A DNA stretch of 64,000 nt from Variovorax paradoxus (GTDB lineage: Bacteria; Pseudomonadota; Gammaproteobacteria; Burkholderiales; Burkholderiaceae_C): positions 4,712,001-4,776,000 of the forward strand of contig NZ_CP046622.1 in NCBI RefSeq assembly GCF_009755665.1, written 5' to 3'. Position 1 is the first letter of the stretch, and each line of letters opens with the position of its first letter. The position numbers and the translations under genes were made by a program. The notes under the pieces are model-generated. The model was not told the origin of the DNA. It made no database searches and saw nothing but the letters and a program-made list of their open reading frames with translations. Positions 6,099 to 59,509 of the stretch are shown one piece after another.

Positions 6099-6773
6099 CT
6101 ATGCGGTTCCGGTCGCAAGGTGCCGCAGCAAGTGCGCGTGCACGGCACCCGCCTTTAGGTAACGAAAACCAACAAGGCCGACGGCGGCGAGCTCCTCGTC
6201 GGTCCACTTGCGAGGTGCTTCCAGATAGACGGCTCCCCCAGCCTTCACGGCCCGGCCCGCGGCGCGCAGCGAAGGTTCGTAGAGGGCGGTGCTGTCGAAA
6301 GGCGGGTCGAGAAATACGGCATCCAGGCTGCCTGCGGCAACGCGTTCGAGCGCGGTGAGCCCGTTGCCGCGCTCGATGCGCACGGCCTCGGCCGAGAGCT
6401 TGGTCTTGGCGGCCTGCAGCTGCCCCACCAGCGCGGCGTCTTGTTCGCACAGCAGCACGCTCGCGGCGCCGCGCGAAGCGGCCTCCAGGCCCAGGGCGCC
6501 AGTGCCCGCGAACGCGTCGACGCAATGCCAGCCCGGCAACTCGCCGCCACCCGCACCCGCGATGCTTGCGAGCCAGTTGAACAGCGTTTCCCTCACGCGG
6601 TCGGGCGTGGGGCGCAGGCCCGGCTTGTCGGCCACGGAAAGACGGGTGCGCTTCCACTGGCCTCCGATGATGCGCACTTCGCTCGGCCGCGATTTGGATC
6701 GGGAGGGCGATTGCGATGACGGCGATGACGACGAGGGGGGGCGCTTGGCGGCTGCGGCTTTCTTCTGGGGCAT
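6099..6773 (-). CDS. rsmD: 16S rRNA (guanine(966)-N2)-methyltransferase
   Basis: RsmD methylates G966 of 16S rRNA. The SAM-binding motif DAFAGTGALGLEAASRG lies around residues 88-104, and the catalytic LDPPF motif lies near residue 157. A Ser/Pro/Lys-rich, probably disordered tail of about 30 residues precedes the conserved VRIIGGQWKR start of the fold; part of it could be an artefact of start choice. The gene pairs with coaD downstream. Confidence 0.94.
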   Translation of the reverse strand: MPQKKAAAAKRPPSSSSPSSQSPSRSKSRPSEVRIIGGQWKRTRLSVADKPGLRPTPDRVRETLFNWLASIAGAGGGELPGWHCVDAFAGTGALGLEAASRGAASVLLCEQDAALVGQLQAAKTKLSAEAVRIERGNGLTALERVAAGSLDAVFLDPPFDSTALYEPSLRAAGRAVKAGGAVYLEAPRKWTDEELAAVGLVGFRYLKAGAVHAHLLRHLATGTA

Positions 6774-6803
6774 GCGGCAAGCTTAACGCCGCCGCGCGTG
6801 CCG

Positions 6804-7439
6804 CTAGATGCCGAGAAAGGCCCGCCGCGCGAGCAGCGCGGCAAGCACGAGCATCGTGCCGCCGATCAGCGCGTCCAGCACCTGCCAGGCACGCGGGCGC
6901 GCGAACACCGGTGCCAGCCACCGCGCGCCGAAGCCCAGCGCAGAGAACCACAGCGCGCTTGCCAGCGTCGCCCCCGCGACGAACCAGGCCTTGAGCGCTC
7001 CGCCGTACTGCGCGCCGGTGCTGCCGACGAGCAGCACGGTGTCCAAGTAGACATGCGGATTCAGCAGCGTGAAGCCTGCCGCCTGAGCGAGCACGGCGGC
7101 GCGCGAAAGCGATGCGCCCTGGGCCGTAGCCTGCAGCGCACCGGGCTGCCGCGAGCGCCACAGCGCGCGCAACCCGTAGCCGCCCAGGAACAGGGCGCCA
7201 AGCCCCGCGAGTGCCGTGGCCACCGCAGGCCGCCCTTGCAGCGCCTGCGCCATACCGGCCACGCCCGCCGTGATCAGGAGCGCGTCGCTCGCCGCGCAGA
7301 ACAGCACCACGGCGCTCACATGCTCGCGCCGCAAGCCCTGGCGCAGCACATAGGCGTTCTGCGCGCCGATGGCGACGATGAGCACCAGGCTCATGAAGAG
7401 CCCGTTTGCGAAAGCGGTGGTGATTTGTTCGGTGACCAT
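6804..7439 (-). CDS. argO: LysE/ArgO-type amino acid exporter
   Basis: This 211-residue inner-membrane exporter has about six hydrophobic segments. It carries LysE-family landmarks: IAIGAQNAYVLRQG-type sequence near residue 24 and the NPHVYLDT motif near residue 125. It is divergent from a LysR regulator of the ArgP type, which is the arrangement for lysine- or arginine-controlled export. The exact substrate (arginine, lysine or both) is not visible. It ends 30 bp before the rsmD start. Confidence 0.88.
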   Translation of the reverse strand: MVTEQITTAFANGLFMSLVLIVAIGAQNAYVLRQGLRREHVSAVVLFCAASDALLITAGVAGMAQALQGRPAVATALAGLGALFLGGYGLRALWRSRQPGALQATAQGASLSRAAVLAQAAGFTLLNPHVYLDTVLLVGSTGAQYGGALKAWFVAGATLASALWFSALGFGARWLAPVFARPRAWQVLDALIGGTMLVLAALLARRAFLGI

Positions 7440-9806: not shown

Positions 9807-11282
9807 TCAACGCATCTCGCCCGCGGGCGCTGCAAAGCCGCGTCCTCGGGGCTTGGCTTCCGGCGGCAGCGGGCGCAAGGTGGCTACCGTGAGCTGGTCG
9901 TCTCCGAAGTACTTGGCGGCCACCGCCTGCACCTGGGCCGGGGTCACGGCCTGCAGCTTCGCGATGATGCGGGCGCTGGAGTCGAGCGGCAGCCCCTGGA
10001 CCCAATTGCTTCCGAGTTCGCGGGCCTGCGCCATCACGGAATCGCGCTTGTAGGTTTCGCTGGCCACCCATTGCGTCTTGACGCGCGCGAGTTCGGCCTC
10101 GCCCACGCCTTCTTTCGCGATGCGCGCCACCTGCGCCCGCAATGCCGCCTCCACCGCCTCGGCGGTCTTTCCGTGCGCCGGCACGCCCACCAGCGTGAAC
10201 AGCTGCGGCCCGCGCCCGGCCAGCCCCGAATAGGCACCCGCGGAATCGGCCACGCGATCGGGGCCCTGGGTCAGCGCGCGGTCGAGCCGTGCGCCGGTGT
10301 AGCCGTCGAGCACGGCCGACAGCACTTCGAGCGCCCACACGTCGCTGTCCGCAGCGTCGATGTTCTCGAGCTGCGGAATGCGGAACGCGAGCGACACGTA
10401 GGCCTGCTCCGCCGGCGCCTTGAATTCGATGCGGCGGATGCCGCGTTGCGCGGGCTCGGTGCGCGGCTTGCGCGGGGGCACGGCGCGCGCGGGAATGCTG
10501 CCGTAGTACTTCTCGGCCAGTGCGCGCACCTTGGCCACGTCGACATCGCCGACCACCACCACGGCGGCGTTGGCGGGCACGTACCAGCGCCGGAAGAATT
10601 CGCGCGCGTCGTCGGGCGTCATGGCGTCCAGGTCGCTCATCCAGCCGACCACGGGGCGCTGGTAGGGCGAAGCCGTGAACACCGCGGCGTTCTGCTGTTC
10701 GCCCAGCAATGCGCGCGGCTGGTCTTCGGTGCGCATGCGGCGCTCTTCCTTGACCACTTCGATCTCGCGCTTGAACTCGTCGTCGGACCACTGGTTGTTG
10801 GCAAAGCGGTCCGACTCGAGCTTCATGACCTGCTCGAGGCTGGCCACCGGAATCTGCTGGTAGTAGCCGGTGAAGTCGCGCGAGGTGAACGCGTTTTCCT
10901 GGCCGCCCAGGGCCGCCACGCGGCGCGAGAACTCACCAGGCTTGATGGTCTTGGTGCCCTTGAACATCATGTGCTCGAGCACGTGGGCCACGCCCGAGGT
11001 GCCGTCGACCTCGTCCACGGAGCCCACGCGCACCCAGACCATCTGCACCGCGGTGGGTGCGCGCCTGTCGGGCAGCACCAGCAGCGTCATGCCGTTGGCC
11101 AGGGTGAACTGCTGGGGCGCAGGCGCCGCGGCGGCAGCGGCCGGTGAAACGGGAGTGGAAGAACTGACAGAGGCGGCGGAAGCCGGTGTGGGCTGGGCGA
11201 GTACAGGCGCCGCCCACAGCGCGGAAAGCGCCATTGCCAGCACCGCACCAGACGCAGCACGGCGTGGCGAGGGGTGTTTCAT
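9807..11282 (-). CDS. Zinc-dependent M16 peptidase (active subunit), periplasmic
   Basis: This 491-residue protein starts with a signal peptide ending near VLAQ (residue 30), followed by an Ala/Pro/Ser-rich linker. The inverted zinc motif HVLEH is at residues 100-104, and the second Glu lies in the helix KREIEVVKEERR around 175-180. It resembles processing-peptidase/pitrilysin-like enzymes that degrade small proteins or peptides. It is co-directional with and just upstream of an inactive partner. It is divergent from ftsY with only 29 bp between starts. Confidence 0.92.
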   Translation of the reverse strand: MKHPSPRRAASGAVLAMALSALWAAPVLAQPTPASAASVSSSTPVSPAAAAAAPAPQQFTLANGMTLLVLPDRRAPTAVQMVWVRVGSVDEVDGTSGVAHVLEHMMFKGTKTIKPGEFSRRVAALGGQENAFTSRDFTGYYQQIPVASLEQVMKLESDRFANNQWSDDEFKREIEVVKEERRMRTEDQPRALLGEQQNAAVFTASPYQRPVVGWMSDLDAMTPDDAREFFRRWYVPANAAVVVVGDVDVAKVRALAEKYYGSIPARAVPPRKPRTEPAQRGIRRIEFKAPAEQAYVSLAFRIPQLENIDAADSDVWALEVLSAVLDGYTGARLDRALTQGPDRVADSAGAYSGLAGRGPQLFTLVGVPAHGKTAEAVEAALRAQVARIAKEGVGEAELARVKTQWVASETYKRDSVMAQARELGSNWVQGLPLDSSARIIAKLQAVTPAQVQAVAAKYFGDDQLTVATLRPLPPEAKPRGRGFAAPAGEMR

Positions 11283-50803: not shown

Positions 50804-51841
50804 TCAGGCCCGCGCCACCTTCACGGTGGCCGCGTCCGCAGCTTCTTCGATGGCATAGCGCACCGGCAAAAAGCGCTCGATCACGGCGCAGTTGGTTCGC
50901 GTGTGCTCCGTCACCTCGCTGCAGGTGAAGGCGGCAGCGCCGCCGCTTTGCCATGCGGCCAGGCCCAGCAGCAGCGCCAGCTGGTCGGCCAGATGCGGCC
51001 CCACGGCCGCCTGGCTCTTCTGGAAGTCGCGCAGCTCCCTCACCAGCGCATGCGCCACTTGCTCTGCGCTCAGCGTCTTTTCGCCGAAGGCCGTAAAAAC
51101 CTCGGTCACGTGCTCGTAGGCCAGCGTGGCGAGCAGCGCGTTGCCCGGCCCTTCGTTCTGCCGCGCCGTGCCAACGCGCAGTTGCTCGCCCGACCAGCCC
51201 ATGGCCTTGCCCAGTGTTTCCAGCTCGCGCGCGGCAATGTGCCGTGCGAGCCCCGGCGCCAGGCACTCGGCATGGCCCGACAGCAGTGCGCCGCGCTCGA
51301 CCAGGTCGAAGGGCTTCAGCCTGTCGACCGACGGAACGATGGTCGCCTCTACCTCGCCACCGCCGGCGGGATAAAAGCCGCAGCGGCGCAGCACCAGTTG
51401 CAGGTCCGCGCCCAGGCGGCGCACCAGCGGCGCAAAGGCGCGCTCCAGAAAGTGGAACGGCGGCGCCATCGGGTTGTGCGTGCCGCCGCGCAGTTGCACG
51501 CGGCTTGGCGCGCCGGCCAGCAGCAGCGGCGGCAGCACCGTTTGCAGCACCAGCATGCAGCTGCCCGCGCTCGCGATCGTGAAGCTGTATTCGCCCGCAC
51601 GCACCGGGCCGGGCACGAAGCGCAGCGAGTGCGATCCGAGCTCGGCCCCTTCGACCTGCGCGCCGCTGATTTCGGCCGCCGCGATGACGCAGGCGAGATG
51701 CTGGCGCATCAGGCCCGGCTTGGCGCGGCCCGCGCGAATCTTCTCGATGGCGACGGGCTGGCCCGTTGCCACCGACAGCGCGAGGCTGGTGCGCAGGATC
51801 TGGCCGCCGCCCTCGCCTTGCGAGCCGTCGAGTTCGATCAT
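50804..51841 (-). CDS. rtcA: RNA 3'-terminal phosphate cyclase
   Basis: RtcA uses ATP to turn an RNA 3'-phosphate into a 2',3'-cyclic phosphate through an adenylated His. The 345-residue protein starts with the family signature DGSQGEGGGQILR and ends with HLADQLALLLGLA, where His283 is the expected nucleophile. The ATG at 51841 overlaps the rlaP stop (ATGA). It is the last gene of the rsr-rtcB operon, so it prepares ends for RtcB ligation. Confidence 0.96.
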   Translation of the reverse strand: MIELDGSQGEGGGQILRTSLALSVATGQPVAIEKIRAGRAKPGLMRQHLACVIAAAEISGAQVEGAELGSHSLRFVPGPVRAGEYSFTIASAGSCMLVLQTVLPPLLLAGAPSRVQLRGGTHNPMAPPFHFLERAFAPLVRRLGADLQLVLRRCGFYPAGGGEVEATIVPSVDRLKPFDLVERGALLSGHAECLAPGLARHIAARELETLGKAMGWSGEQLRVGTARQNEGPGNALLATLAYEHVTEVFTAFGEKTLSAEQVAHALVRELRDFQKSQAAVGPHLADQLALLLGLAAWQSGGAAAFTCSEVTEHTRTNCAVIERFLPVRYAIEEAADAATVKVARA

Positions 51842-52695
51842 GCACAGCCTCCTTTCTTTGCATCGGACGCGGCCGCGTCGAAGCGCAGCACCGTCTCGCA
51901 GAGAAACGCATCGAGCCCTGCACCCTCGGCCTGCGGCAGCGGCGCGACGGGTTCGGCCGCGTTGGCCGCCAGCTCGCTTTCGATGAACGCGTGAATGCCG
52001 GGCCAGCGCGGGCTGGTCGCAGCTTCTCCGGCGCGCATCTTCACTTCGAGCAGCGCGTTGATTTCCTCGATCAGCGCGGCATCGCGCACGGCGTCGAGCG
52101 TCTTCTGCGCCAGGTCGGCAAAGCGCATCGGCGGCACGCCGGGCTGCGTGCGGATCCATCGCGCGGCCAGCAGCGGGCGCAGCACATAGAGGTATTTCTT
52201 GTAGCGCACCTCGTCCGCCTGCAGGTGCTCGCGAAAATTCTTCTTTGCCATCGACGCGTAGTGATGCCAGCCGCGCGCGTTGGAAAACACCGCCTCCGAG
52301 AGCGCACGAAACCGTGGCATGGCCGCGTCGTCCTCGCGGTACACCACCGGCGAGCGCAGCCATTCGAGCAGCGTGGGGTTCGACTCGCGCATGAGGCCCA
52401 GCGCCTTGCGCAGGTCCCAGCCGTTCACGTCGAGGTCGCCGCTGATCGGCAGTTCGATCACGTCGCGGCGCGGCGTGACCGTGAGGTACCACGGCAGGCG
52501 GTTCACGTAGATGAAGCGCACGTCGTAGTCGCTGTCGGGCGAGGCAAAACCCCAGCCGCGGCTACCGGATTCGCAGGCGAACAGCACCGTCACGTCATGG
52601 CGCGTTTCGATGTCGCGCAGCGCGTCCATGATCTGCGCGCGCATGGCGGGATCGATGGGGTGCGCCGAGCGCAGGAATTCTTCTTGGTTGCTCAT
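51838..52695 (-). CDS. rlaP: RlaP-type nucleotidyltransferase (RNA-repair-associated pol-beta family)
   Basis: This 285-residue protein has the polymerase-beta-type nucleotidyltransferase motif GSRGWGFASPDSDYD, with Gly44-Ser45 and Asp54/Asp56/Asp58 near the N terminus. The rest matches the RlaP group, named for its frequent pairing with RNA ligases and cyclases. Its reaction is not established; nucleotide addition to damaged RNA ends is the usual proposal. It is coupled to rtcA by a four-base overlap and lies 33 bp after rnz. Confidence 0.88.
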   Translation of the reverse strand: MSNQEEFLRSAHPIDPAMRAQIMDALRDIETRHDVTVLFACESGSRGWGFASPDSDYDVRFIYVNRLPWYLTVTPRRDVIELPISGDLDVNGWDLRKALGLMRESNPTLLEWLRSPVVYREDDAAMPRFRALSEAVFSNARGWHHYASMAKKNFREHLQADEVRYKKYLYVLRPLLAARWIRTQPGVPPMRFADLAQKTLDAVRDAALIEEINALLEVKMRAGEAATSPRWPGIHAFIESELAANAAEPVAPLPQAEGAGLDAFLCETVLRFDAAASDAKKGGCA

Positions 52696-52728
52696 GGATA
52701 AAAATCTTCTTCTTGCCGCCGGATGTTC

Positions 52729-53700
52729 TCATTCATCCGATCGGGCTCGGGTGACAGCCACCTTGCCGGCGCTGTCGAGTTCAAAAACGTCCAGGTCGTT
52801 GGCCAGGAACGCGGTGCCGGTGTAGTAGGCCTGGGTTTCCGCCATCAGCGCCGCCATCCCCTCTTCGTTCTGGTGGCGCGGGCTCAGGTGCGTCAGCACC
52901 AGGTTGGGCACTTTGGCAGACTGCGCAAACTCGGCCAGCAGGCGCGCGGAGCTGTGCATGGGCCCTGGGCCGACCTTGTCCAGCGCCTCCTGCGTGTAGG
53001 TGGCCTCGTGCACCAGCAGTTGAGCGCCTTCGCAGGCCGCATGCAGCAGCGCAGGCTCCGCGTTGTCACCGCCAAGCACAGCGCTTGCCGTGTCGACCTG
53101 CGTCTCCGCAAAGTCGGCACTGCGCAGCACCGCGCCGTTGAAAGGCACGTCTTCGCCGTTCTGCAGCGCGCGCCATGCGGGGCCGGGCGGCAGGCCGGCG
53201 GCACGAAGCGCGTCGGCCTTCAGCCGCACGCGCCAGGTTTCGACCTGCACGCGATAGGCGTGGCTGGGCACCCGGTGCCGCAGCACATGGCGGTCGATGC
53301 GTAGGCCCGGGGCTTCGTACACCAGCGCGTCGGCTTCCAGATCGACATGCTCCACCTCGTAGGGCAGATGCAGGTCCGTCAACCGGCGCGTGGCGTCGAA
53401 CCATTGCCACACCGGCAGCGGCGCGATCAGCTTCAGCGGCCTGGTGCGCTTGCCCATGCCCGCGCTCGCGAGCAGGCCCGGCAGACCGTAGCAATGGTCG
53501 CCATGCACGTGCGTGATGCAGACCGCCGCCATCTCGTGCAAAGACAGCCGGGTCTGCTGCAGCCGATGCTGCGTGCCCTCGCCGCAATCGACAAGGAACC
53601 AGTCGGTGCCGAGCACGGTTTGCACCGCGAGGCCGGAGACGTTGCGCTGGCGCGTGGGAACTCCTGAGGATGTGCCCAGGAAGGTGAGCTTCATCAGCAT
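52729..53700 (-). CDS. rnz: RNase Z-like metallo-beta-lactamase fold nuclease
   Basis: This 323-residue MBL-fold protein has the RNase Z start (KLTFLGTSSGVPTRQRN), FLVDCGEGTQHRL, and the metal motif HVHGDH (His64-His69 region), with later ligands in GGDNAE, HEATY and THLSPRH. RNase Z cuts tRNA precursors 3' of the discriminator base. In this operon it sits between the zinc-ribbon gene and rlaP, so its target may be the operon's tRNA-like RNAs or damaged tRNAs. The start overlaps the upstream gene by seven bases; an ATG at 53694 is the alternative. Confidence 0.92.
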   Translation of the reverse strand: MLMKLTFLGTSSGVPTRQRNVSGLAVQTVLGTDWFLVDCGEGTQHRLQQTRLSLHEMAAVCITHVHGDHCYGLPGLLASAGMGKRTRPLKLIAPLPVWQWFDATRRLTDLHLPYEVEHVDLEADALVYEAPGLRIDRHVLRHRVPSHAYRVQVETWRVRLKADALRAAGLPPGPAWRALQNGEDVPFNGAVLRSADFAETQVDTASAVLGGDNAEPALLHAACEGAQLLVHEATYTQEALDKVGPGPMHSSARLLAEFAQSAKVPNLVLTHLSPRHQNEEGMAALMAETQAYYTGTAFLANDLDVFELDSAGKVAVTRARSDE

Positions 53701-54350
53701 TTCCAACTCCCCTCTTCGGCCCTGCGCGCCAGTGCTTTCGTCGCGGCGTCTGCTGCCTCGCGTTCCCACGTCCCGTAGCTGCTCGTGCGGTTCGCTGCGA
53801 ATGCCTGCAGCCGCTCGATCTGCTCGGCCCCACCCCACTGACCCATGACTTCGATGGCGACCACGCGCAGACTGCGCCACTTGCTTTGCAGGGCAGCTTC
53901 CACTTGCGCGAGCGCGTTGGCGGTGAGCTTTTGCATGGCGAGCGCACGCAACCGGGCCACCTCGTCGCCCAGCAGGTTGGCGCCTTCGTTCCGAAGCGCT
54001 GCATCGCGCAAGGCCCGGCGGGCCTGCCGGCATGCATGGCATCGCACTGCGTGGCTGTACACCGAGCCTTGCGCGACTTCGTGCCACCACTTCTGCTGCT
54101 TCGCCGTCCATACCTCCTGGGCGCCGCAATCTCGGCAGGTGTAGGCCTGATCAAGATAGAAATCCGGCACCTCGCCGAACGTGGTGTTGTAGTGCGCAAG
54201 CCGCGACTTGTCGGCCATGACCATGCCGGGCACGAGTCCGCCCGCCGAGAGCTGACGGGCGTCTTGCGTGCGCAGCTGCGCCTTCAACGCTGCGGCGCGT
54301 TGGAGTCGATGCGCCTTGATTTCGGCGCGGCGTTGCTTGTTGCTTTTCAT
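53694..54350 (-). CDS. Zinc-ribbon (zf-trcl-like) protein of the RNA-repair operon
   Basis: I recognise only a domain. The 218-residue protein has a basic N terminus (KQRRAEIKAHRLQR), then a zinc ribbon with Cys72, Cys75, Cys104 and Cys107 around a CxxCGAQEVWTAKQQKWW core typical of zf-trcl. An all-alpha C-terminal half with HEAT-like segments (SLRVVAIEVMGQWG) follows. The charged N terminus and ribbon suggest RNA binding. It is coupled to rnz and follows rtcB by 64 bp. Confidence 0.78.
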   Translation of the reverse strand: MKSNKQRRAEIKAHRLQRAAALKAQLRTQDARQLSAGGLVPGMVMADKSRLAHYNTTFGEVPDFYLDQAYTCRDCGAQEVWTAKQQKWWHEVAQGSVYSHAVRCHACRQARRALRDAALRNEGANLLGDEVARLRALAMQKLTANALAQVEAALQSKWRSLRVVAIEVMGQWGGAEQIERLQAFAANRTSSYGTWEREAADAATKALARRAEEGSWKC

Positions 54351-54414
54351 TGTTTACTTACCCGATTGCCGTTGCACACGCCCGCACCCTCCGTCCTGAG
54401 ACCAGCGCGGGTTA

Positions 54415-55638
<1,224 letters not shown>

Positions 55639-55711
55639 TTTCTTTTCTCTCTATCTATTCTTCACGACCGTCTGATTCGGGCGCCGGATCCGAAATCCGC
55701 GCTTGCGGAAT

Positions 55712-55837
55712 AAAAAGGTGACGAGGAGCGACGGGTTGTTAACTGAGCTATCTGCCGAAACAGACCGGGGGTTGAACCCGGGACCTTCATGGCCAAGACC
55801 ATGACGCTCTATCCTGTAAACCCGCCTGCATTCACCT
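55712..55837 (-). ncRNA. Y-RNA-like RNA 3: tRNA-like domain opened in the D loop
   Basis: This proposed 126-nt RNA folds from helices I can pair exactly. The outer stem is AGGUGA/UCACCU (55832-55837 with 55716-55721) and the second stem CGGGUU/AACCCG (55819-55824 with 55732-55737). A D-like stem GAGC/GCUC follows (55806-55809 with 55745-55748). The anticodon-like arm is at 55787-55804, the T arm with UUCAACC loop at 55765-55781, and an acceptor-like stem UCUGU/GCAGA capped by UUCG at 55751-55764. The chain is thus circularly permuted at the D loop. A U tract ends it. The 5' strand has the shared GAAUGC-N9-UACA module. Confidence 0.78.
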
Positions 55838-55843
55838 CAAAAC

Positions 55844-55969
55844 AAAAAAGCAGCGACAAAAATCGGCGAAACATTCGTGCTCTACCACTGAGCTACGGCC
55901 TTGCGACCGGCGGGATTCGAACCCGCGACCACGAGATTAAGAGTCTGTAGTTCCGCCAGCATTCGCTGC
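55844..55969 (-). ncRNA. Y-RNA-like RNA 2 (YrlA-like): tRNA-like domain opened at the anticodon loop
   Basis: This proposed 126-nt RNA has an outer stem GCAGCGA/UCGCUGC (55963-55969 with 55850-55856) and a second stem GGCGGAA/UUUCGCC. An anticodon-like stem UCGUG/CACGA follows (55930-55934 with 55875-55879), then a T arm with UUCGAAU loop (55910-55926). The acceptor-like stem CGGUC/GGCCG is capped by GCAA (55896-55909), and the D arm is GCUC/GAGC (55879-55893). The 3' tRNA half precedes the 5' half, as in bacterial Y RNAs. Six U residues follow the outer stem. Part of the 3' half resembles tRNA-Lys(CUU). Confidence 0.83.
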
Positions 55970-56054
55970 AAAAAACCTCATCCCCGTTCGGCGACCAACA
56001 ATCGATGCGAGGAAGAACATGGTTGGATGTACTCGCATCTGCATTCGCCGAACG
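55970..56054 (-). ncRNA. Y-RNA-like RNA 1: minimal form without tRNA domain
   Basis: This is the RNA nearest rsr, about 85 nt. A 10-bp outer stem (56045-56054 with 55985-55994) is followed by an asymmetric internal loop, AUGCA facing GAUUGUUGG. Next come an 8-bp perfect stem GAUGCGAG/CUCGCAUC (56032-56039 with 56004-56011) and a 20-nt end loop that can form a small ACAU/AUGU helix. It has the GAAUGC-N9-UACA module of its two neighbours. Its 3' strand GAUUGUUGGUCGC resembles that of RNA 2. It ends in six U residues. Confidence 0.75.
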
Positions 56055-56078
56055 ACGACGTTCAATTCATTTCGAGCC

Positions 56079-56108
56079 GGGCACCACGGGCCGAAGCCCG
56101 CGGCGCCC
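56079..56108 (-). other. 13-bp UUCG-capped hairpin after the rsr stop codon
   Basis: Seventeen bases after the rsr stop, 30 bases form a 13-bp stem (including three G-U pairs) closed by a UUCG tetraloop. There is no U tract after it. It may protect the 3' end of the rsr mRNA after processing and separate the mRNA from the Y-like RNAs. Confidence 0.75.
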
Positions 56109-56125
56109 TTTTCTCTTTTCTTCTC

Positions 56126-57679
56126 TCAGATCGAAGTCTCTTCGATCACACCCACCCAGTGTTCGGCGCCCAGGCCGCCCGCGGCATACACCGCCAGCAG
56201 CTTGAACACTTCGTCGCTGAAGCCGCCGATGTTCAGCACATCGCCACGCTCCTGCGCCTGGGTGGTCGCATAGGGCTGGATGTCGATGCACACCAGCCGC
56301 GCCTTGGGGTTGCGCTGCTTGAACGCCTCCCACTCCTGCATGGTGGCCGTACCTCGGCCACGTGCAGCATCGGCCCACGATTCGTTGTCCGACACCAGCA
56401 CCACCAGATCGGCTTGCGCCTTCTCCTTGTTCAGCAGCGCCAGCGGCGCGCTGCACGAGGTACCGCCGCCGCCCACCGCCGCCAGCTTGGCTGCGTTGGT
56501 CATCACCGAATCGCGCGGATTCAGCTTCAGCGGCACCACCTTGGTCTCGAAGGGCAGCACACGCGCATCCGCATTGCGGCGCAGCACGGCGGCAGCAACC
56601 AGCGCGGCTACGTCGATGCAGCGCACCGCCGAGGTGGCCGAGCCGCGGTGGCCCGTCACCGGCGAGCTCATGGAGCCCGACACGTCGGGGCACACCACCA
56701 CGCGGCCCTCGAACACCGGCACATTGGCCAGCGCGAGTTCCATCGCGTCCTGCAGCGCCTCTTTCACCGCGTGAGGCACCTCGGCGCCGGTTGCGGTGTA
56801 GGCCGCCATCAGCTGGTACGGCAGCACGCGCGCCTTGGCCACGGCCTGCGGGTCGCGCAGCTTGGCAGCCACCGCTTCCGCGAGGCCGGGCAACTCGAAC
56901 ACGCCGTGGCGCGCAAAGGTGTTCAGGTTCTGACGCACCATCTGCCACGATCCACGCTGCGCGATCTGCGCCCAGGCCTGCGCGTCCAGCTCCAGCGCGG
57001 TCAGCATCTGGAACGGCACGTCGGGCACCGCTTGCGCACGGTCGCGCTTGAAGCGTTCGAAAGCCTGCGTCACCGGAGGCAGAGCCTCCAGCGCACACGG
57101 ACGATCGATGAGCCATGCGAACCATGCGGCGCGCCAGGCTTCGGCGGGCTTCGGGTGAACCATCTTCACCACGTCGGCCAGCGAGGGCGTGTTGCCCACG
57201 GCAGCGTTGAGCAGCTGCGCCTCGGTTGCTTCGAGCAGCCATTGCTGCACGAGCTTCTTCGGACGCGTGCCGAGCGACTTGCGGCCCACCGCGCCGGAAC
57301 GCAGCATCTGCACGAAGTTGCGCAGCATCTTGCCGTTGTCGACCACGCGGCCGAACACCTTGGCAAGCAGTGCCACGTCGCGCACCGCCAGCGTGGCGGC
57401 CAGCAGCGCAGGCATGTCCTTCATGTGGCCGGCGCGGCGTGCGTACACGGCCGTCTTGGCGACGAACACCGGATCGACTTCGCGGGCCAGTGCCAGCACG
57501 GTGTCGAGCCGGTCCTGCGCTTGCGCATAGAAGGTGCTGTTCAGGCAGCCGGTGGCCGCGAGCTGCGCCAGCTGGTGCTTTGGCGACAGCGCGTAGGCCG
57601 CGCCGCCCGCTTCGTTGAGCGTGCTGGCCGAAGGCAGCAGCGCGCCGCGCAGGGTCTGGAAGAGTTGAAGGTTGGCCAT
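56126..57679 (-). CDS. rsr: Ro60 orthologue Rsr (TROVE domain protein)
   Basis: This is the 517-residue bacterial Ro60 protein, an RNA-binding ring of HEAT-like repeats (residues about 15-320) joined to a von Willebrand A domain. The MIDAS metal site DVSGSMS places Asp332, Ser334 and Ser336. Ro60 binds Y RNAs and misfolded RNA and, in Deinococcus, works with polynucleotide phosphorylase. AAGGAG lies eight bases before the start. It is the first gene of the operon, followed at once by three Y-RNA-like RNAs. Confidence 0.96.
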   Translation of the reverse strand: MANLQLFQTLRGALLPSASTLNEAGGAAYALSPKHQLAQLAATGCLNSTFYAQAQDRLDTVLALAREVDPVFVAKTAVYARRAGHMKDMPALLAATLAVRDVALLAKVFGRVVDNGKMLRNFVQMLRSGAVGRKSLGTRPKKLVQQWLLEATEAQLLNAAVGNTPSLADVVKMVHPKPAEAWRAAWFAWLIDRPCALEALPPVTQAFERFKRDRAQAVPDVPFQMLTALELDAQAWAQIAQRGSWQMVRQNLNTFARHGVFELPGLAEAVAAKLRDPQAVAKARVLPYQLMAAYTATGAEVPHAVKEALQDAMELALANVPVFEGRVVVCPDVSGSMSSPVTGHRGSATSAVRCIDVAALVAAAVLRRNADARVLPFETKVVPLKLNPRDSVMTNAAKLAAVGGGGTSCSAPLALLNKEKAQADLVVLVSDNESWADAARGRGTATMQEWEAFKQRNPKARLVCIDIQPYATTQAQERGDVLNIGGFSDEVFKLLAVYAAGGLGAEHWVGVIEETSI

Positions 57680-57739
57680 GTGACTTCTCCTTGTGGCGTT
57701 CTTTTTGTTCGTTCGTTTTCTTGGATGTGTGATCCTTAT

Positions 57740-57755
57740 TGCAACGGGTGTGCCA
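57740..57755 (-). promoter_or_regulatory. Sigma54 (-24/-12) promoter of the rsr-rtcBA operon
   Basis: The minus strand reads TGGCACACCCGTTGCA, a full match to TGGCAC-N5-TTGCW. The predicted transcript start is near 57729, about 50 bases before the rsr ATG. The activator gene rtcR is divergent, so RtcR with sigma54 should drive the operon. Confidence 0.93.
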
Positions 57756-57774
57756 GCCAGCAGCTCCGTAGCGC

Positions 57775-57842
57775 CAGCTGAAGTTAAGTTGTTGATCTGA
57801 AAAAGATTTTTCTGATTTTCAGCTGATCACACCAAGTTCAGC
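57775..57842. promoter_or_regulatory. Candidate RtcR upstream activating sites
   Basis: An inverted pair CAGCTGAA (57775-57782) and TTCAGCTG (57818-57825) flanks a central dyad GAAAAA-GA-TTTTTC (57799-57812). A third TTCAGC lies at 57837. They are 20 to 90 bp upstream of the -24 element, a usual range for enhancer sites. Assignment to RtcR is inference. Confidence 0.55.
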
Positions 57843-57865
57843 AGGCTCAAATAGACGGCAGTTCT

Positions 57866-57892
57866 TATAATTTTGGATAGTTATTTATCCAA
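57866..57892 (+). promoter_or_regulatory. rtcR promoter -10 box and leader dyad
   Basis: A consensus TATAAT (57866-57871) lies upstream of rtcR with no good -35 box. It is followed by a 7-bp dyad TTGGATA-N6-TATCCAA (57873-57892) that ends four bases before the start codon. The dyad would fold in the mRNA next to the start and may limit translation. Confidence 0.6.
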
Positions 57893-57895
57893 TCA

Positions 57896-59509
57896 ATGAA
57901 GAAATCAACCGTCGTCATCGGCTTTCTCGGCACGCAGCTAGACGCCGGCCAGGGCACCGGCCGCTGGGAGAAGTGGCGCCCCACCGTCTCACTCGCGCAG
58001 CACGAGGACATGGTCATCTCGCGCATGGAGCTGCTCTACACGCTCAAGCACAAGGCGCTGGCCGAGGTGGTCAAGACCGACATTGCCACCGTGTCGCCGG
58101 AGACCATGGTCAACCTCGTTCCGCTCGACCTTGCGGACCCGTGGGATTTCGGCGAGGTGTACGCGCGCCTCTACGACTGGGCACGCACCTACACCTTCGA
58201 CACCGAGCGCGAGCAGTACTGGACGCACATCACCACCGGCACGCACGTGGCGCAGATCTGCATGTTCCTGCTGGCCGAATCGCGGGTGATCCCGGGCGTG
58301 CTGGCGCAGACCTCACCGCCCAAGCGGCAGCGCGCGGGCAACCCGGGCGACGTTGCGCTGATCGACCTCGACCTGTCGCGCTACGACGCGATTGCGCGGC
58401 GCTTCGATGCCGAGCAGCGCGATGCGGTGGCATTTTTGAAGAGCGGCATCGCCACGCGCAATGCGCGCTTCAATGCACTCATCGACGAGATCGAACGCGT
58501 GGCGGTGCGATCGCGCGCGCCGATCTTGCTGGTGGGGCCGACCGGTGCGGGCAAGTCCTTCCTGGCGCGGCGCATGTTCGAACTGAAGCAGGCGCGGCAT
58601 CAGATGACGGGGCCGTTCGTGGAGGTGAACTGCGCCACGCTGCGGGGCGACGGCGCCGCATCCACACTGTTCGGCCACAAGAAAGGCGCATTCACCGGCG
58701 CAGCGGGCGAGCGCGCGGGCCTGCTGCGCACGGCGCACCAGGGCGCGCTTTTTCTCGACGAGATCGGCGAGCTCGGCCTCGACGAACAGGCGATGCTGCT
58801 CAAGGCGATCGAAGAGAAGCGCTTCTTCCCTGTGGGCGCCGACAAGGAGGTGGAAAGCGACTTCCAGCTCATTGCCGGCACCAACCGCGACCTGCGCAGC
58901 GACGTGGCCGGCGGGCGCTTTCGCGAAGACCTGTTCGCGCGCATCAATCTCTGGACCTACGACCTGCCGGGCCTTGCAAAGCGGCCGGAAGACATAGAGC
59001 CCAACATCGATCACCTGCTGGCCATCCACGCGGCCGAGAACAATCGCGTGGTGCGCTTCAACGCCGAGGCCCGCGCCGCCTACCTGCGGTTTGCGCAAAG
59101 CGCCGAGGCGCTGTGGTGCGGCAACTTCCGCGACCTCTCGGCCAGCGTGACGCGGCTGGCCACGCTGGCGGACGGCGGGCGCATTCCTGTCGCGCTGGTC
59201 GAAGCCGAGATTGCGCGGCTTCGCTGGCTGTGGAACCGCGAGAGCCCGAAAACCGCCGGCGGCGGCGCAGAGGACGTGGACCTCGACGCACTGTTGGGCG
59301 ATGAGCGCACGGCCGCGCTCGACCTGTTCGACCGGCTGCAGCTGGAGGCGGTGGTGCGCGTGTGCCGTGATTCGCGCAGCCTGTCGGACGCGGGGCGGCA
59401 GCTGTTCCAGGCGTCGCGCGCGCAGCGCAGCGTGGTGAACGATGCCGACCGGCTCCGGAAGTACCTTGCAAAGCATAGGCTCGAATGGAGCCGAATTGCC
59501 GCGGGCTGA
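57896..59509 (+). CDS. rtcR: Sigma54-dependent activator RtcR
   Basis: This 537-residue activator has an N-terminal CARF-type domain (about 1-180), an AAA+ domain and a C-terminal Fis-like helix-turn-helix (SLSDAGRQLF...). The AAA+ part has Walker A GPTGAGKS (214-221), the sigma54-contact loop GAFTGA (264-269) and Walker B LFLDEI. In Salmonella RtcR responds to damaged tRNA pieces with cyclic phosphate ends. It is divergent from rsr and should act at the sigma54 promoter in the spacer. Confidence 0.96.
   Translation: MKKSTVVIGFLGTQLDAGQGTGRWEKWRPTVSLAQHEDMVISRMELLYTLKHKALAEVVKTDIATVSPETMVNLVPLDLADPWDFGEVYARLYDWARTYTFDTEREQYWTHITTGTHVAQICMFLLAESRVIPGVLAQTSPPKRQRAGNPGDVALIDLDLSRYDAIARRFDAEQRDAVAFLKSGIATRNARFNALIDEIERVAVRSRAPILLVGPTGAGKSFLARRMFELKQARHQMTGPFVEVNCATLRGDGAASTLFGHKKGAFTGAAGERAGLLRTAHQGALFLDEIGELGLDEQAMLLKAIEEKRFFPVGADKEVESDFQLIAGTNRDLRSDVAGGRFREDLFARINLWTYDLPGLAKRPEDIEPNIDHLLAIHAAENNRVVRFNAEARAAYLRFAQSAEALWCGNFRDLSASVTRLATLADGGRIPVALVEAEIARLRWLWNRESPKTAGGGAEDVDLDALLGDERTAALDLFDRLQLEAVVRVCRDSRSLSDAGRQLFQASRAQRSVVNDADRLRKYLAKHRLEWSRIAAG

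What the first reader, a model, noticed from the sequence alone, without database searches (positions are those of the whole stretch)
50804..59509. Extended RNA-repair operon: rsr, three Y-like RNAs, rtcB, zinc ribbon, RNase Z, rlaP, rtcA under RtcR/sigma54
Seen: seven protein genes and three structured RNAs on one strand with tight spacing, a perfect sigma54 promoter in front, and a divergent RtcR. Known: Salmonella has rsr-yrlBA-rtcBA regulated by RtcR. New here is the combination with an RNase Z-like nuclease, a zf-trcl protein and RlaP between rtcB and rtcA. The set contains enzymes to trim, modify, cyclise and ligate RNA ends plus a Ro60 RNP, so it could be a complete tRNA repair and quality-control unit.
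Basis: partly seen in the sequence, partly recalled or inferred. Interest (0 to 1): 0.88.

Follow-up and report, generated by a model that had tools for sequence, protein, structure and literature searches.

The report
RNA-repair operon carrying an RNase Z
A bacterium of the genus Variovorax carries a switch-controlled set of genes for mending broken RNA that also holds an RNase Z-like enzyme, normally a tRNA-end trimmer, and similar pairings in other bacteria suggest that trimming tRNA ends can be part of RNA repair.

The parts
57896..59509 (+). rtcR, CARF + sigma54-activator regulator, divergent
   Evidence: Pfam RtcR 273.4 bits, NCBIfam NF038308 822.5 bits over cut-off 650
57875..57890 (.). 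inverted repeat GGATA-N6-TATCC just upstream of rtcR; possible operator, function unknown
   Evidence: conserved block in the 15-row promoter alignment; L019 carries paired changes in both arms (read by eye)
57740..57755 (-). sigma54 (-24/-12) promoter element TGGCACACCCGTTGCA
   Evidence: only match in window, 0.05 expected; conserved in 15 of 15 aligned regions
56126..57679 (-). rsr, Ro60-related protein (TROVE + vWA)
   Evidence: Pfam vWA_Ro60 66.5 bits, TROVE 29.4 bits, both over cut-off; under NCBIfam Rsr equivalog cut-off
55986..56053 (-). Y-I: Y-type stem without tRNA-like module
   Evidence: 4 of 20 pairs with compensatory changes in 11 distinct sequences
55847..55969 (-). Y-II: YrlA-type Y RNA; T arm, short closed stem, D arm (order of a circularly permuted tRNA)
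   Evidence: Rfam RF02553 79.4 bits; 99.8% of cells paired
55716..55838 (-). Y-III: divergent YrlA-like RNA with an extra anticodon-arm-like hairpin
   Evidence: RF02553 26 bits, under cut-off; 99.2% of cells paired in 7 sequences, weak covariation
54415..55638 (-). rtcB, 3'-P/5'-OH RNA ligase
   Evidence: Pfam RtcB 429 bits
53694..54350 (-). treble-clef zinc protein with basic N terminus and helical (HEAT-like) C terminus
   Evidence: Pfam zf_Tbcl 55.6 bits; low-confidence model, pTM 0.42
52729..53694 (-). rnz, short-form (ElaC-type) RNase Z-like metallo-beta-lactamase
   Evidence: best solved relatives are chains named ribonuclease Z, 2cbn (E 1.2e-47) and 1y44 (7.6e-44); catalytic residues invariant in 20 of 20 Variovorax sequences; TIGR02651 235.3 bits, below cut-off 292.95
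51838..52695 (-). rlaP, RNA-ligase-associated pol-beta nucleotidyltransferase
   Evidence: Pfam RlaP 306.4 bits
50804..51841 (-). rtcA, RNA 3'-phosphate cyclase
   Evidence: Pfam RTC 261 bits; three NCBIfam RNA 3'-phosphate cyclase equivalogs over cut-off

Best explanation
This is an RtcR/sigma54-switched RNA-repair operon with two enzyme arms. (1) Break sealing: RtcA cyclises 3'-phosphate ends and RtcB joins 2',3'-cyclic phosphate/3'-phosphate to 5'-OH ends (known chemistry of these families). (2) 3'-end healing: the RNase Z-like enzyme trims damaged, blocked or wrongly extended tRNA 3' ends and the nucleotidyltransferase RlaP restores lost nucleotides, a bacterial parallel to human ELAC1 followed by the CCA-adding enzyme (inferred; ELAC1 details recalled, only the title of that paper was seen). 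Rsr with the Y RNAs, replaced by a Band-7/SPFH protein in sister operons, serves as platform or quality-control factor. In Salmonella, tRNA 5' fragments ending in cyclic phosphate activate RtcR (PMC7790460); the same trigger is inferred here. Shown here: gene content, conserved promoter, conserved RNA folds, linkage and co-occurrence of rnz with rtc genes. Inferred: the division of labour, the substrates, and that one transcript covers the whole set.
For: Families. Conserved promoter. rnz occurs only with rtcB in the genus: 11 of 22 rtcB+ genomes, 0 of 15 rtcB- (Fisher p 9e-4; related genomes, so not independent). rnz is the only strong RNase Z match in its genome (next E 0.0016) and 47 of 48 tRNA genes carry CCA at the match end, so a housekeeping role is not required. 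rnz and rlaP are neighbours in 19 of 19 Variovorax loci that hold both, in Aliikangiella (L032, with rtcR-rtcB-rtcA-SPFH-HEAT upstream) and in Teredinibacter (L046, overlapping by 4 nt, no rtcB found near); joining the Teredinibacter gene to the Variovorax/Moraxellaceae clade is rejected, p-AU 0.006. rnz next to rtcR and rtcB in Moraxellaceae in another gene order; clade support 100/97.
Against: No enzyme assay or transcript. rlaP is absent from 4 of 25 Variovorax operons (L005, L013, L016, L021), all 4 of which keep rnz, so the pair is not obligate; two operons (L103, L104) have rlaP without rnz. In 7 of 7 Moraxellaceae loci checked the sigma54-like site lies between rnz and rtcB/rsr, so rnz is outside the RtcR unit there, and no RlaP was found beside it. 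Two Acinetobacter loci keep rnz with no rtc genes near (L181, L201). Of 47 non-Variovorax loci only 2 have rlaP, and 1 has rtcB, within the stretch fetched. RlaP regions of other lineages lack rnz: 0 of 13 class genomes other than the window's, 0 of 6 further regions from the order of Aliikangiella. Common origin of the Aliikangiella rnz with the main clade is not rejected (p-AU 0.24). The protein scores below NCBIfam's RNase Z equivalog cut-offs.
Confidence: 0.45

Rival explanations
1. RNase Z matures the operon's own RNAs: it trims the tRNA-like modules of the Y RNAs, or the 233-nt CCA-ended tRNA-like RNA of sister operons.
For: Y-II and Y-III carry a T arm and a short closed stem; 12 of the 25 Variovorax loci hold a tRNA-like RNA with a 7-bp acceptor stem and CCA. 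The one that is degenerate (88 nt) is L103, which also lacks rnz.
Against: rnz is equally present in operons without rsr (8 of 9 Band-7 type, plus L019); L104 has rsr and four Y-type modules but no rnz. The window's operon and several other rnz-bearing loci lack the CCA-ended RNA by the pattern. The closed stem of Y-II is only 5 bp and offers no free 3' trailer.
Confidence: 0.2
2. rnz is an ordinary tRNA-processing gene that happens to sit in the operon.
For: 45 of 47 RNase Z loci outside Variovorax have neither rlaP nor rtcB in the stretch fetched; two Acinetobacter loci keep rnz without rtc genes.
Against: 26 of 37 Variovorax genomes lack it, and it occurs only where rtcB does; 47 of 48 tRNA genes carry CCA.
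Confidence: 0.15
3. [not shown]
For: RtcR is activated by cyclic-phosphate tRNA fragments and how the signal is ended is open (PMC7790460, discussion); Rsr/Y RNA assist RNA decay in Deinococcus (PMC7790460, introduction).
Against: RtcR ligands are 5' halves ending in the anticodon loop, whereas RNase Z acts at the acceptor end (family knowledge).
Confidence: 0.15

Closest known systems
Salmonella rsr-yrlBA-rtcBA operon under RtcR (Hughes et al. 2020, PMC7790460; abstract, introduction and discussion read)
   Same: RtcR divergent, sigma54, rsr, Y RNAs, rtcB, rtcA in the same order
   Different: the operon as named there has no treble-clef protein, RNase Z or RlaP, and two Y RNAs instead of three
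RlaP-containing RNA-repair systems (Burroughs and Aravind 2016, not held, abstract recalled; summarised in PMC7824862 and PMC6514570, passages read)
   Same: RNA ligase with RlaP, TROVE platform with a tRNA-like RNA partner; accretion of accessory genes, some with zinc ribbons and charged helices (beside RFH-RtcB). A Band-7/SPFH gene in the P. aeruginosa rtc locus: PMC13086221, one passage read
Moraxellaceae rtcR|rnz-[rsr]-rtcB-[X]-DIP1984-rtcA locus (L180, L195-L200)
   Different: rnz lies before the sigma54-like site; no RlaP found; different accessory genes
Human ELAC1 tRNA 3'-end repair (Yip et al. 2020; title seen in reference lists, content recalled)
   Same: short-form RNase Z acting in tRNA repair before a nucleotidyltransferase
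   Different: eukaryotic ribosome quality control, no operon, different nucleotidyltransferase

Membership tests
RtcR-controlled RNA-repair (rtc) operon | divergent RtcR with CARF and sigma54-activator domains | tested here: met
RtcR-controlled RNA-repair (rtc) operon | sigma54 promoter ahead of rsr/rtcB, conserved in relatives | tested here: met
   Band-7-type sisters carry a 9-of-10 variant (TGGCAC-N5-NTGC) in 7 of 9
RtcR-controlled RNA-repair (rtc) operon | rtcB and rtcA on the same strand | tested here: met
RtcR-controlled RNA-repair (rtc) operon | induction by tRNA damage through RtcR | not testable with these tools
   needs RNA-seq
RNase Z (short form, ElaC type) | HxHxDH plus further metal ligands of the MBL fold | tested here: met
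   invariant in 20 of 20 Variovorax rows
RNase Z (short form, ElaC type) | GP motif of the tRNA-binding exosite | tested here: met
   G171-P172 in the window; G in 20 of 20, P in 19 of 20 Variovorax rows; motif meaning recalled
RNase Z (short form, ElaC type) | score over NCBIfam equivalog cut-off (an annotation rule, not biochemistry) | tested here: not met
   TIGR02651 235.3 of 292.95; NF000801 222.5 of 252; hence called RNase Z-like
RNase Z (short form, ElaC type) | tRNA 3'-end endonuclease activity | not testable with these tools
   needs an enzyme assay
YrlA Y RNA (RF02553), for Y-II | covariance-model score over gathering cut-off | tested here: met
   79.4 of 69
YrlA Y RNA (RF02553), for Y-I and Y-III | covariance-model score over gathering cut-off | tested here: not met
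   Y-III 26 bits; Y-I no YrlA hit
RlaP | Pfam RlaP domain over cut-off | tested here: met
   306.4 of 23 bits, profile positions 1-245 of 249
Ro60/Rsr | TROVE and vWA domains over Pfam cut-offs | tested here: met
Ro60/Rsr | score over NCBIfam Rsr equivalog cut-off (an annotation rule) | tested here: not met
   77.2 of 900

The most novel reading that the evidence does not exclude
A bacterial tRNA-repair system with a dedicated acceptor-end arm: an RNase Z subfamily (Variovorax plus Moraxellaceae rtc loci) has left tRNA maturation, works with RlaP to resect and rebuild tRNA 3' ends cut or over-extended by toxins, and has been drawn from a neighbour position (before the sigma54 site, Moraxellaceae) into the damage-inducible operon itself (Variovorax). 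One switch would then mend both anticodon breaks and acceptor-end damage.
Probability: 0.28. Interest if true: 0.8.

Novelty: new variant of a known kind. Interest (0 to 1): 0.55.

Why it matters
The in vivo substrates of bacterial RtcAB, Rsr/Y RNA and RlaP are poorly known. An RNase Z that most genomes of the genus do without but that is tied to rtcB gives a direct, testable pointer to tRNA acceptor ends as a repair substrate, and would give bacteria a counterpart of ELAC1-type repair. The module grammar of the Variovorax operons (rsr or Band-7, never both in the 24 loci that can be judged; exchangeable accessory genes; one locus with an anti-phage gene) fits the idea of RNA repair as part of biological conflict.

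Tried and rejected
Three Y RNAs as three equal YrlA copies: rejected; only Y-II passes Rfam. RNase Z as housekeeping: weakened. RNase Z as Y RNA maturase: weakened, see rivals. Treble-clef protein homologous to the Acinetobacter hyp216 protein: no alignment. Structure of the treble-clef protein: pTM 0.42, judged too weak for a fold search, none run. Phage-defence label: PADLOC gives only RtcR models for the seven window proteins. An L015 tRNA hit (6742-6876) overlaps the YrlA hit and runs into the next module; taken as a by-product of the permuted order. A first CCA count gave 34 of 48 because minus-strand loci are not turned; corrected to 47 of 48.

Counts and drops: the 25 Variovorax loci are the window, L003-L021, L103, L104, L108, L115, L116; seven re-fetched copies (L107, L109-L114) were dropped. 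Twenty of the 25 were chosen by rnz (window) and the other five by rnz or rlaP, so rnz presence there is largely by construction; the fairer count is the 37-genome one. In that count G370 and G397 (partial rtcB) are positive, G392 (53.8-bit fragment) negative, and G387's weak partial rnz match (E 2.4e-8, 93 residues) is negative. Tree 1 has 67 rows; tree 2 has 54: 27 of the 67 dropped as near-duplicates or long branches, 14 added. Of the 14 genomes, 5 have rnz; in the 4 besides the window's it lies on another contig than rlaP. Of 10 rnz genomes, 5 hold RlaP, 2 of them beside rnz.
Full report
What is there. On the minus strand, from a sigma54 site at 57755-57740: rsr, three Y-type RNAs, rtcB, a treble-clef protein, an RNase Z-like gene, rlaP, rtcA; rtcR is divergent. 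Overlaps (rlaP/rtcA 4 nt, zf/rnz 1 nt) and gaps of 33 and 64 nt at the other two junctions downstream of rtcB fit co-transcription, which was not shown.

RNAs. Y-I is a bare Y stem; Y-II is a YrlA by Rfam; Y-III is divergent (26 bits). Compensatory change: Y-I 4 of 20 pairs, 12 cells, reached by 0 of 500 shuffles for cells but 28 of 500 for pairs; Y-II 2 of 33 pairs, 9 cells, 0 of 500 for cells but 433 of 500 for pairs; Y-III 2 of 37 pairs, 2 cells, in 7 sequences, 17 of 500. In Y-II and Y-III the T arm precedes the D arm, the order of a circularly permuted tRNA opened in the anticodon arm. A further module (Y-T1) is found by pattern in 11 of the 14 rsr-type loci; L017 has a near match outside the pattern, the window and L003 none. 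The Y modules are followed by runs of T, so each may be released by termination; this was read by eye only.

Conservation. 25 distinct Variovorax loci: rsr in 14, a Band-7/SPFH gene in 9, both in 0, neither in 1 (L019, whose promoter region still shows a YrlA-like remnant, read by eye), one cut by the contig end (L008). Relative order rtcB-zf-rnz-rlaP-rtcA in 17 of 25; rlaP missing in 4, zf in 3 (two with rnz, one without), rnz in 2. Accessory genes seen: a MXAN_6230/SCO0854-type protein (under NCBIfam's cut-off), a HEAT protein, four small unknowns, and in L014 a protein matching the PD-T4-7 anti-phage models. The strict sigma54 pattern is absent from the Band-7-type spacers; a 9-of-10 variant is there in 7 of 9.

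The RNase Z question. It has the catalytic residues of the family in 20 of 20 Variovorax rows and RNase Z chains as best solved relatives, but scores under NCBIfam equivalog cut-offs. In 37 Variovorax genomes: rnz 11, rlaP 10, rtcB 22; rnz with rtcB 11 of 11; rnz with rlaP 8 of 11 (Fisher p 1.6e-4; within rtcB+ genomes p 0.03; related genomes, so these are guides). Of 24 other genomes of the order, 3 have a weak match (E 7.5e-6 to 3.7e-9, 24-32% identity) and 21 none at 1e-5. 47 of 48 tRNA genes carry CCA.

Outside the genus. Of 47 other loci found by rnz, 2 have rlaP beside it: Aliikangiella (with rtcR, rtcB, rtcA, Band-7 and HEAT genes upstream) and Teredinibacter. RlaP itself is in 14 of 369 genomes of the class, the window's included, and in 9 of 148 of the order of Aliikangiella; it sits with rtc genes in L089, L091, L106, L126 and L130, none with rnz in the stretch fetched. 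A plasmid search (15 of 60 records listed) led to Acinetobacter: rtcR|rnz-rtcB-X-DIP1984-rtcA. In 99 Moraxellaceae genomes rnz is in 42, rtcB in 42, both in 30; within 4 kb on one strand in 6 (G653, G644, G608, G628, G593, G660), where about 0.1 would be expected for random places, ignoring kinship; G644 also has rsr. A seventh (G619) has rnz near DIP1984 and rtcA but no rtcB found. In 7 of 7 loci checked the sigma54-like site (TGGCA[CT]-N5-NTGCA, 8-9 of 10 consensus positions) is after rnz. The tree joins Variovorax and Moraxellaceae rtc-type rnz (100/97; this clade includes the solo genes L181 and L201), with three of the four other stand-alone Moraxellaceae genes as sister (92/90) and L204 elsewhere. 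Holding Teredinibacter in that clade is rejected (p-AU 0.006), Aliikangiella is not (0.24). So the union of RNase Z with RNA repair arose at least twice if the Teredinibacter rnz-rlaP pair is counted, and has been rearranged.

Mechanism. See best explanation. PMC7824862 (passages) describes RlaP as restoring missing bases at RNA ends and TROVE as a platform with a tRNA-like partner; PMC7790460 (abstract, introduction, discussion) reports the RtcR trigger in Salmonella. MenT toxins that extend tRNA acceptor ends (PMC11541572, PMC10435456; start of abstracts seen in a listing) show that 3' over-extension is a real form of tRNA damage that an RNase Z could undo; this link is mine.

Print. Searches for RNase Z or ribonuclease Z with RtcB, RNA repair or RtcA: 69 papers hold 3 of 4 terms, 15 listed; the two listed that hold 'RNase Z' are PMC12699882 and PMC7181669; 0 papers; 2 papers, PMC7181669 and PMC5544427. 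By title these three are unrelated; they were not read. The library lacks most subscription papers, including the 2016 survey, so novelty of the RNase Z link is provisional.

Noticed in passing
L009:6727-6959, L010, L011, L012, L013, L014, L016, L017, L020, L006, L116; degenerate in L103:12758-12845: A nearly invariant 233-234-nt tRNA-like RNA with 7-bp acceptor stem, T arm and encoded CCA lies between rsr or Band-7 and rtcB in 11 sister operons (shrunk to 88 nt in L103; 3' end only in L108). In L009 and L116, the two scanned, no Rfam family matched it at the gathering cut-off.
   Followed up: partly
L014:5985-7028: A protein matching PADLOC's PD-T4-7 anti-phage models sits inside the repair operon between the Band-7 gene and rtcB.
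   Followed up: no
L091:5169-5383 and L032:3805-3881: tRNA-like genes with unusual anticodons (AGA, AGU, unassigned; UAU) lie next to Band-7 genes of rtc loci; possible decoys.
   Followed up: no
window 57875-57890: Inverted repeat at the rtcR start, with paired changes in L019; possible autoregulatory operator.
   Followed up: partly
L181, L201: Acinetobacter loci that keep the rtc-type rnz while no rtc genes are found in the stretch fetched.
   Followed up: partly
L033:8670-8957: A short ORF before a stand-alone rnz weakly resembles the start of the Band-7 proteins of rtc loci (31% over 42 aa, E 3e-5); perhaps a remnant of such a locus.
   Followed up: partly
L200:9971-10465: A 29%-identical relative of the Variovorax accessory protein p237 lies between rtcB and DIP1984 in a Moraxellaceae rtc locus.
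   Followed up: no
window 10943-11043 (-): ARAGORN calls a 101-nt tRNA-Arg that is not among the 48 tRNAs found with the Rfam model in the genome; probably a false call.
   Followed up: partly
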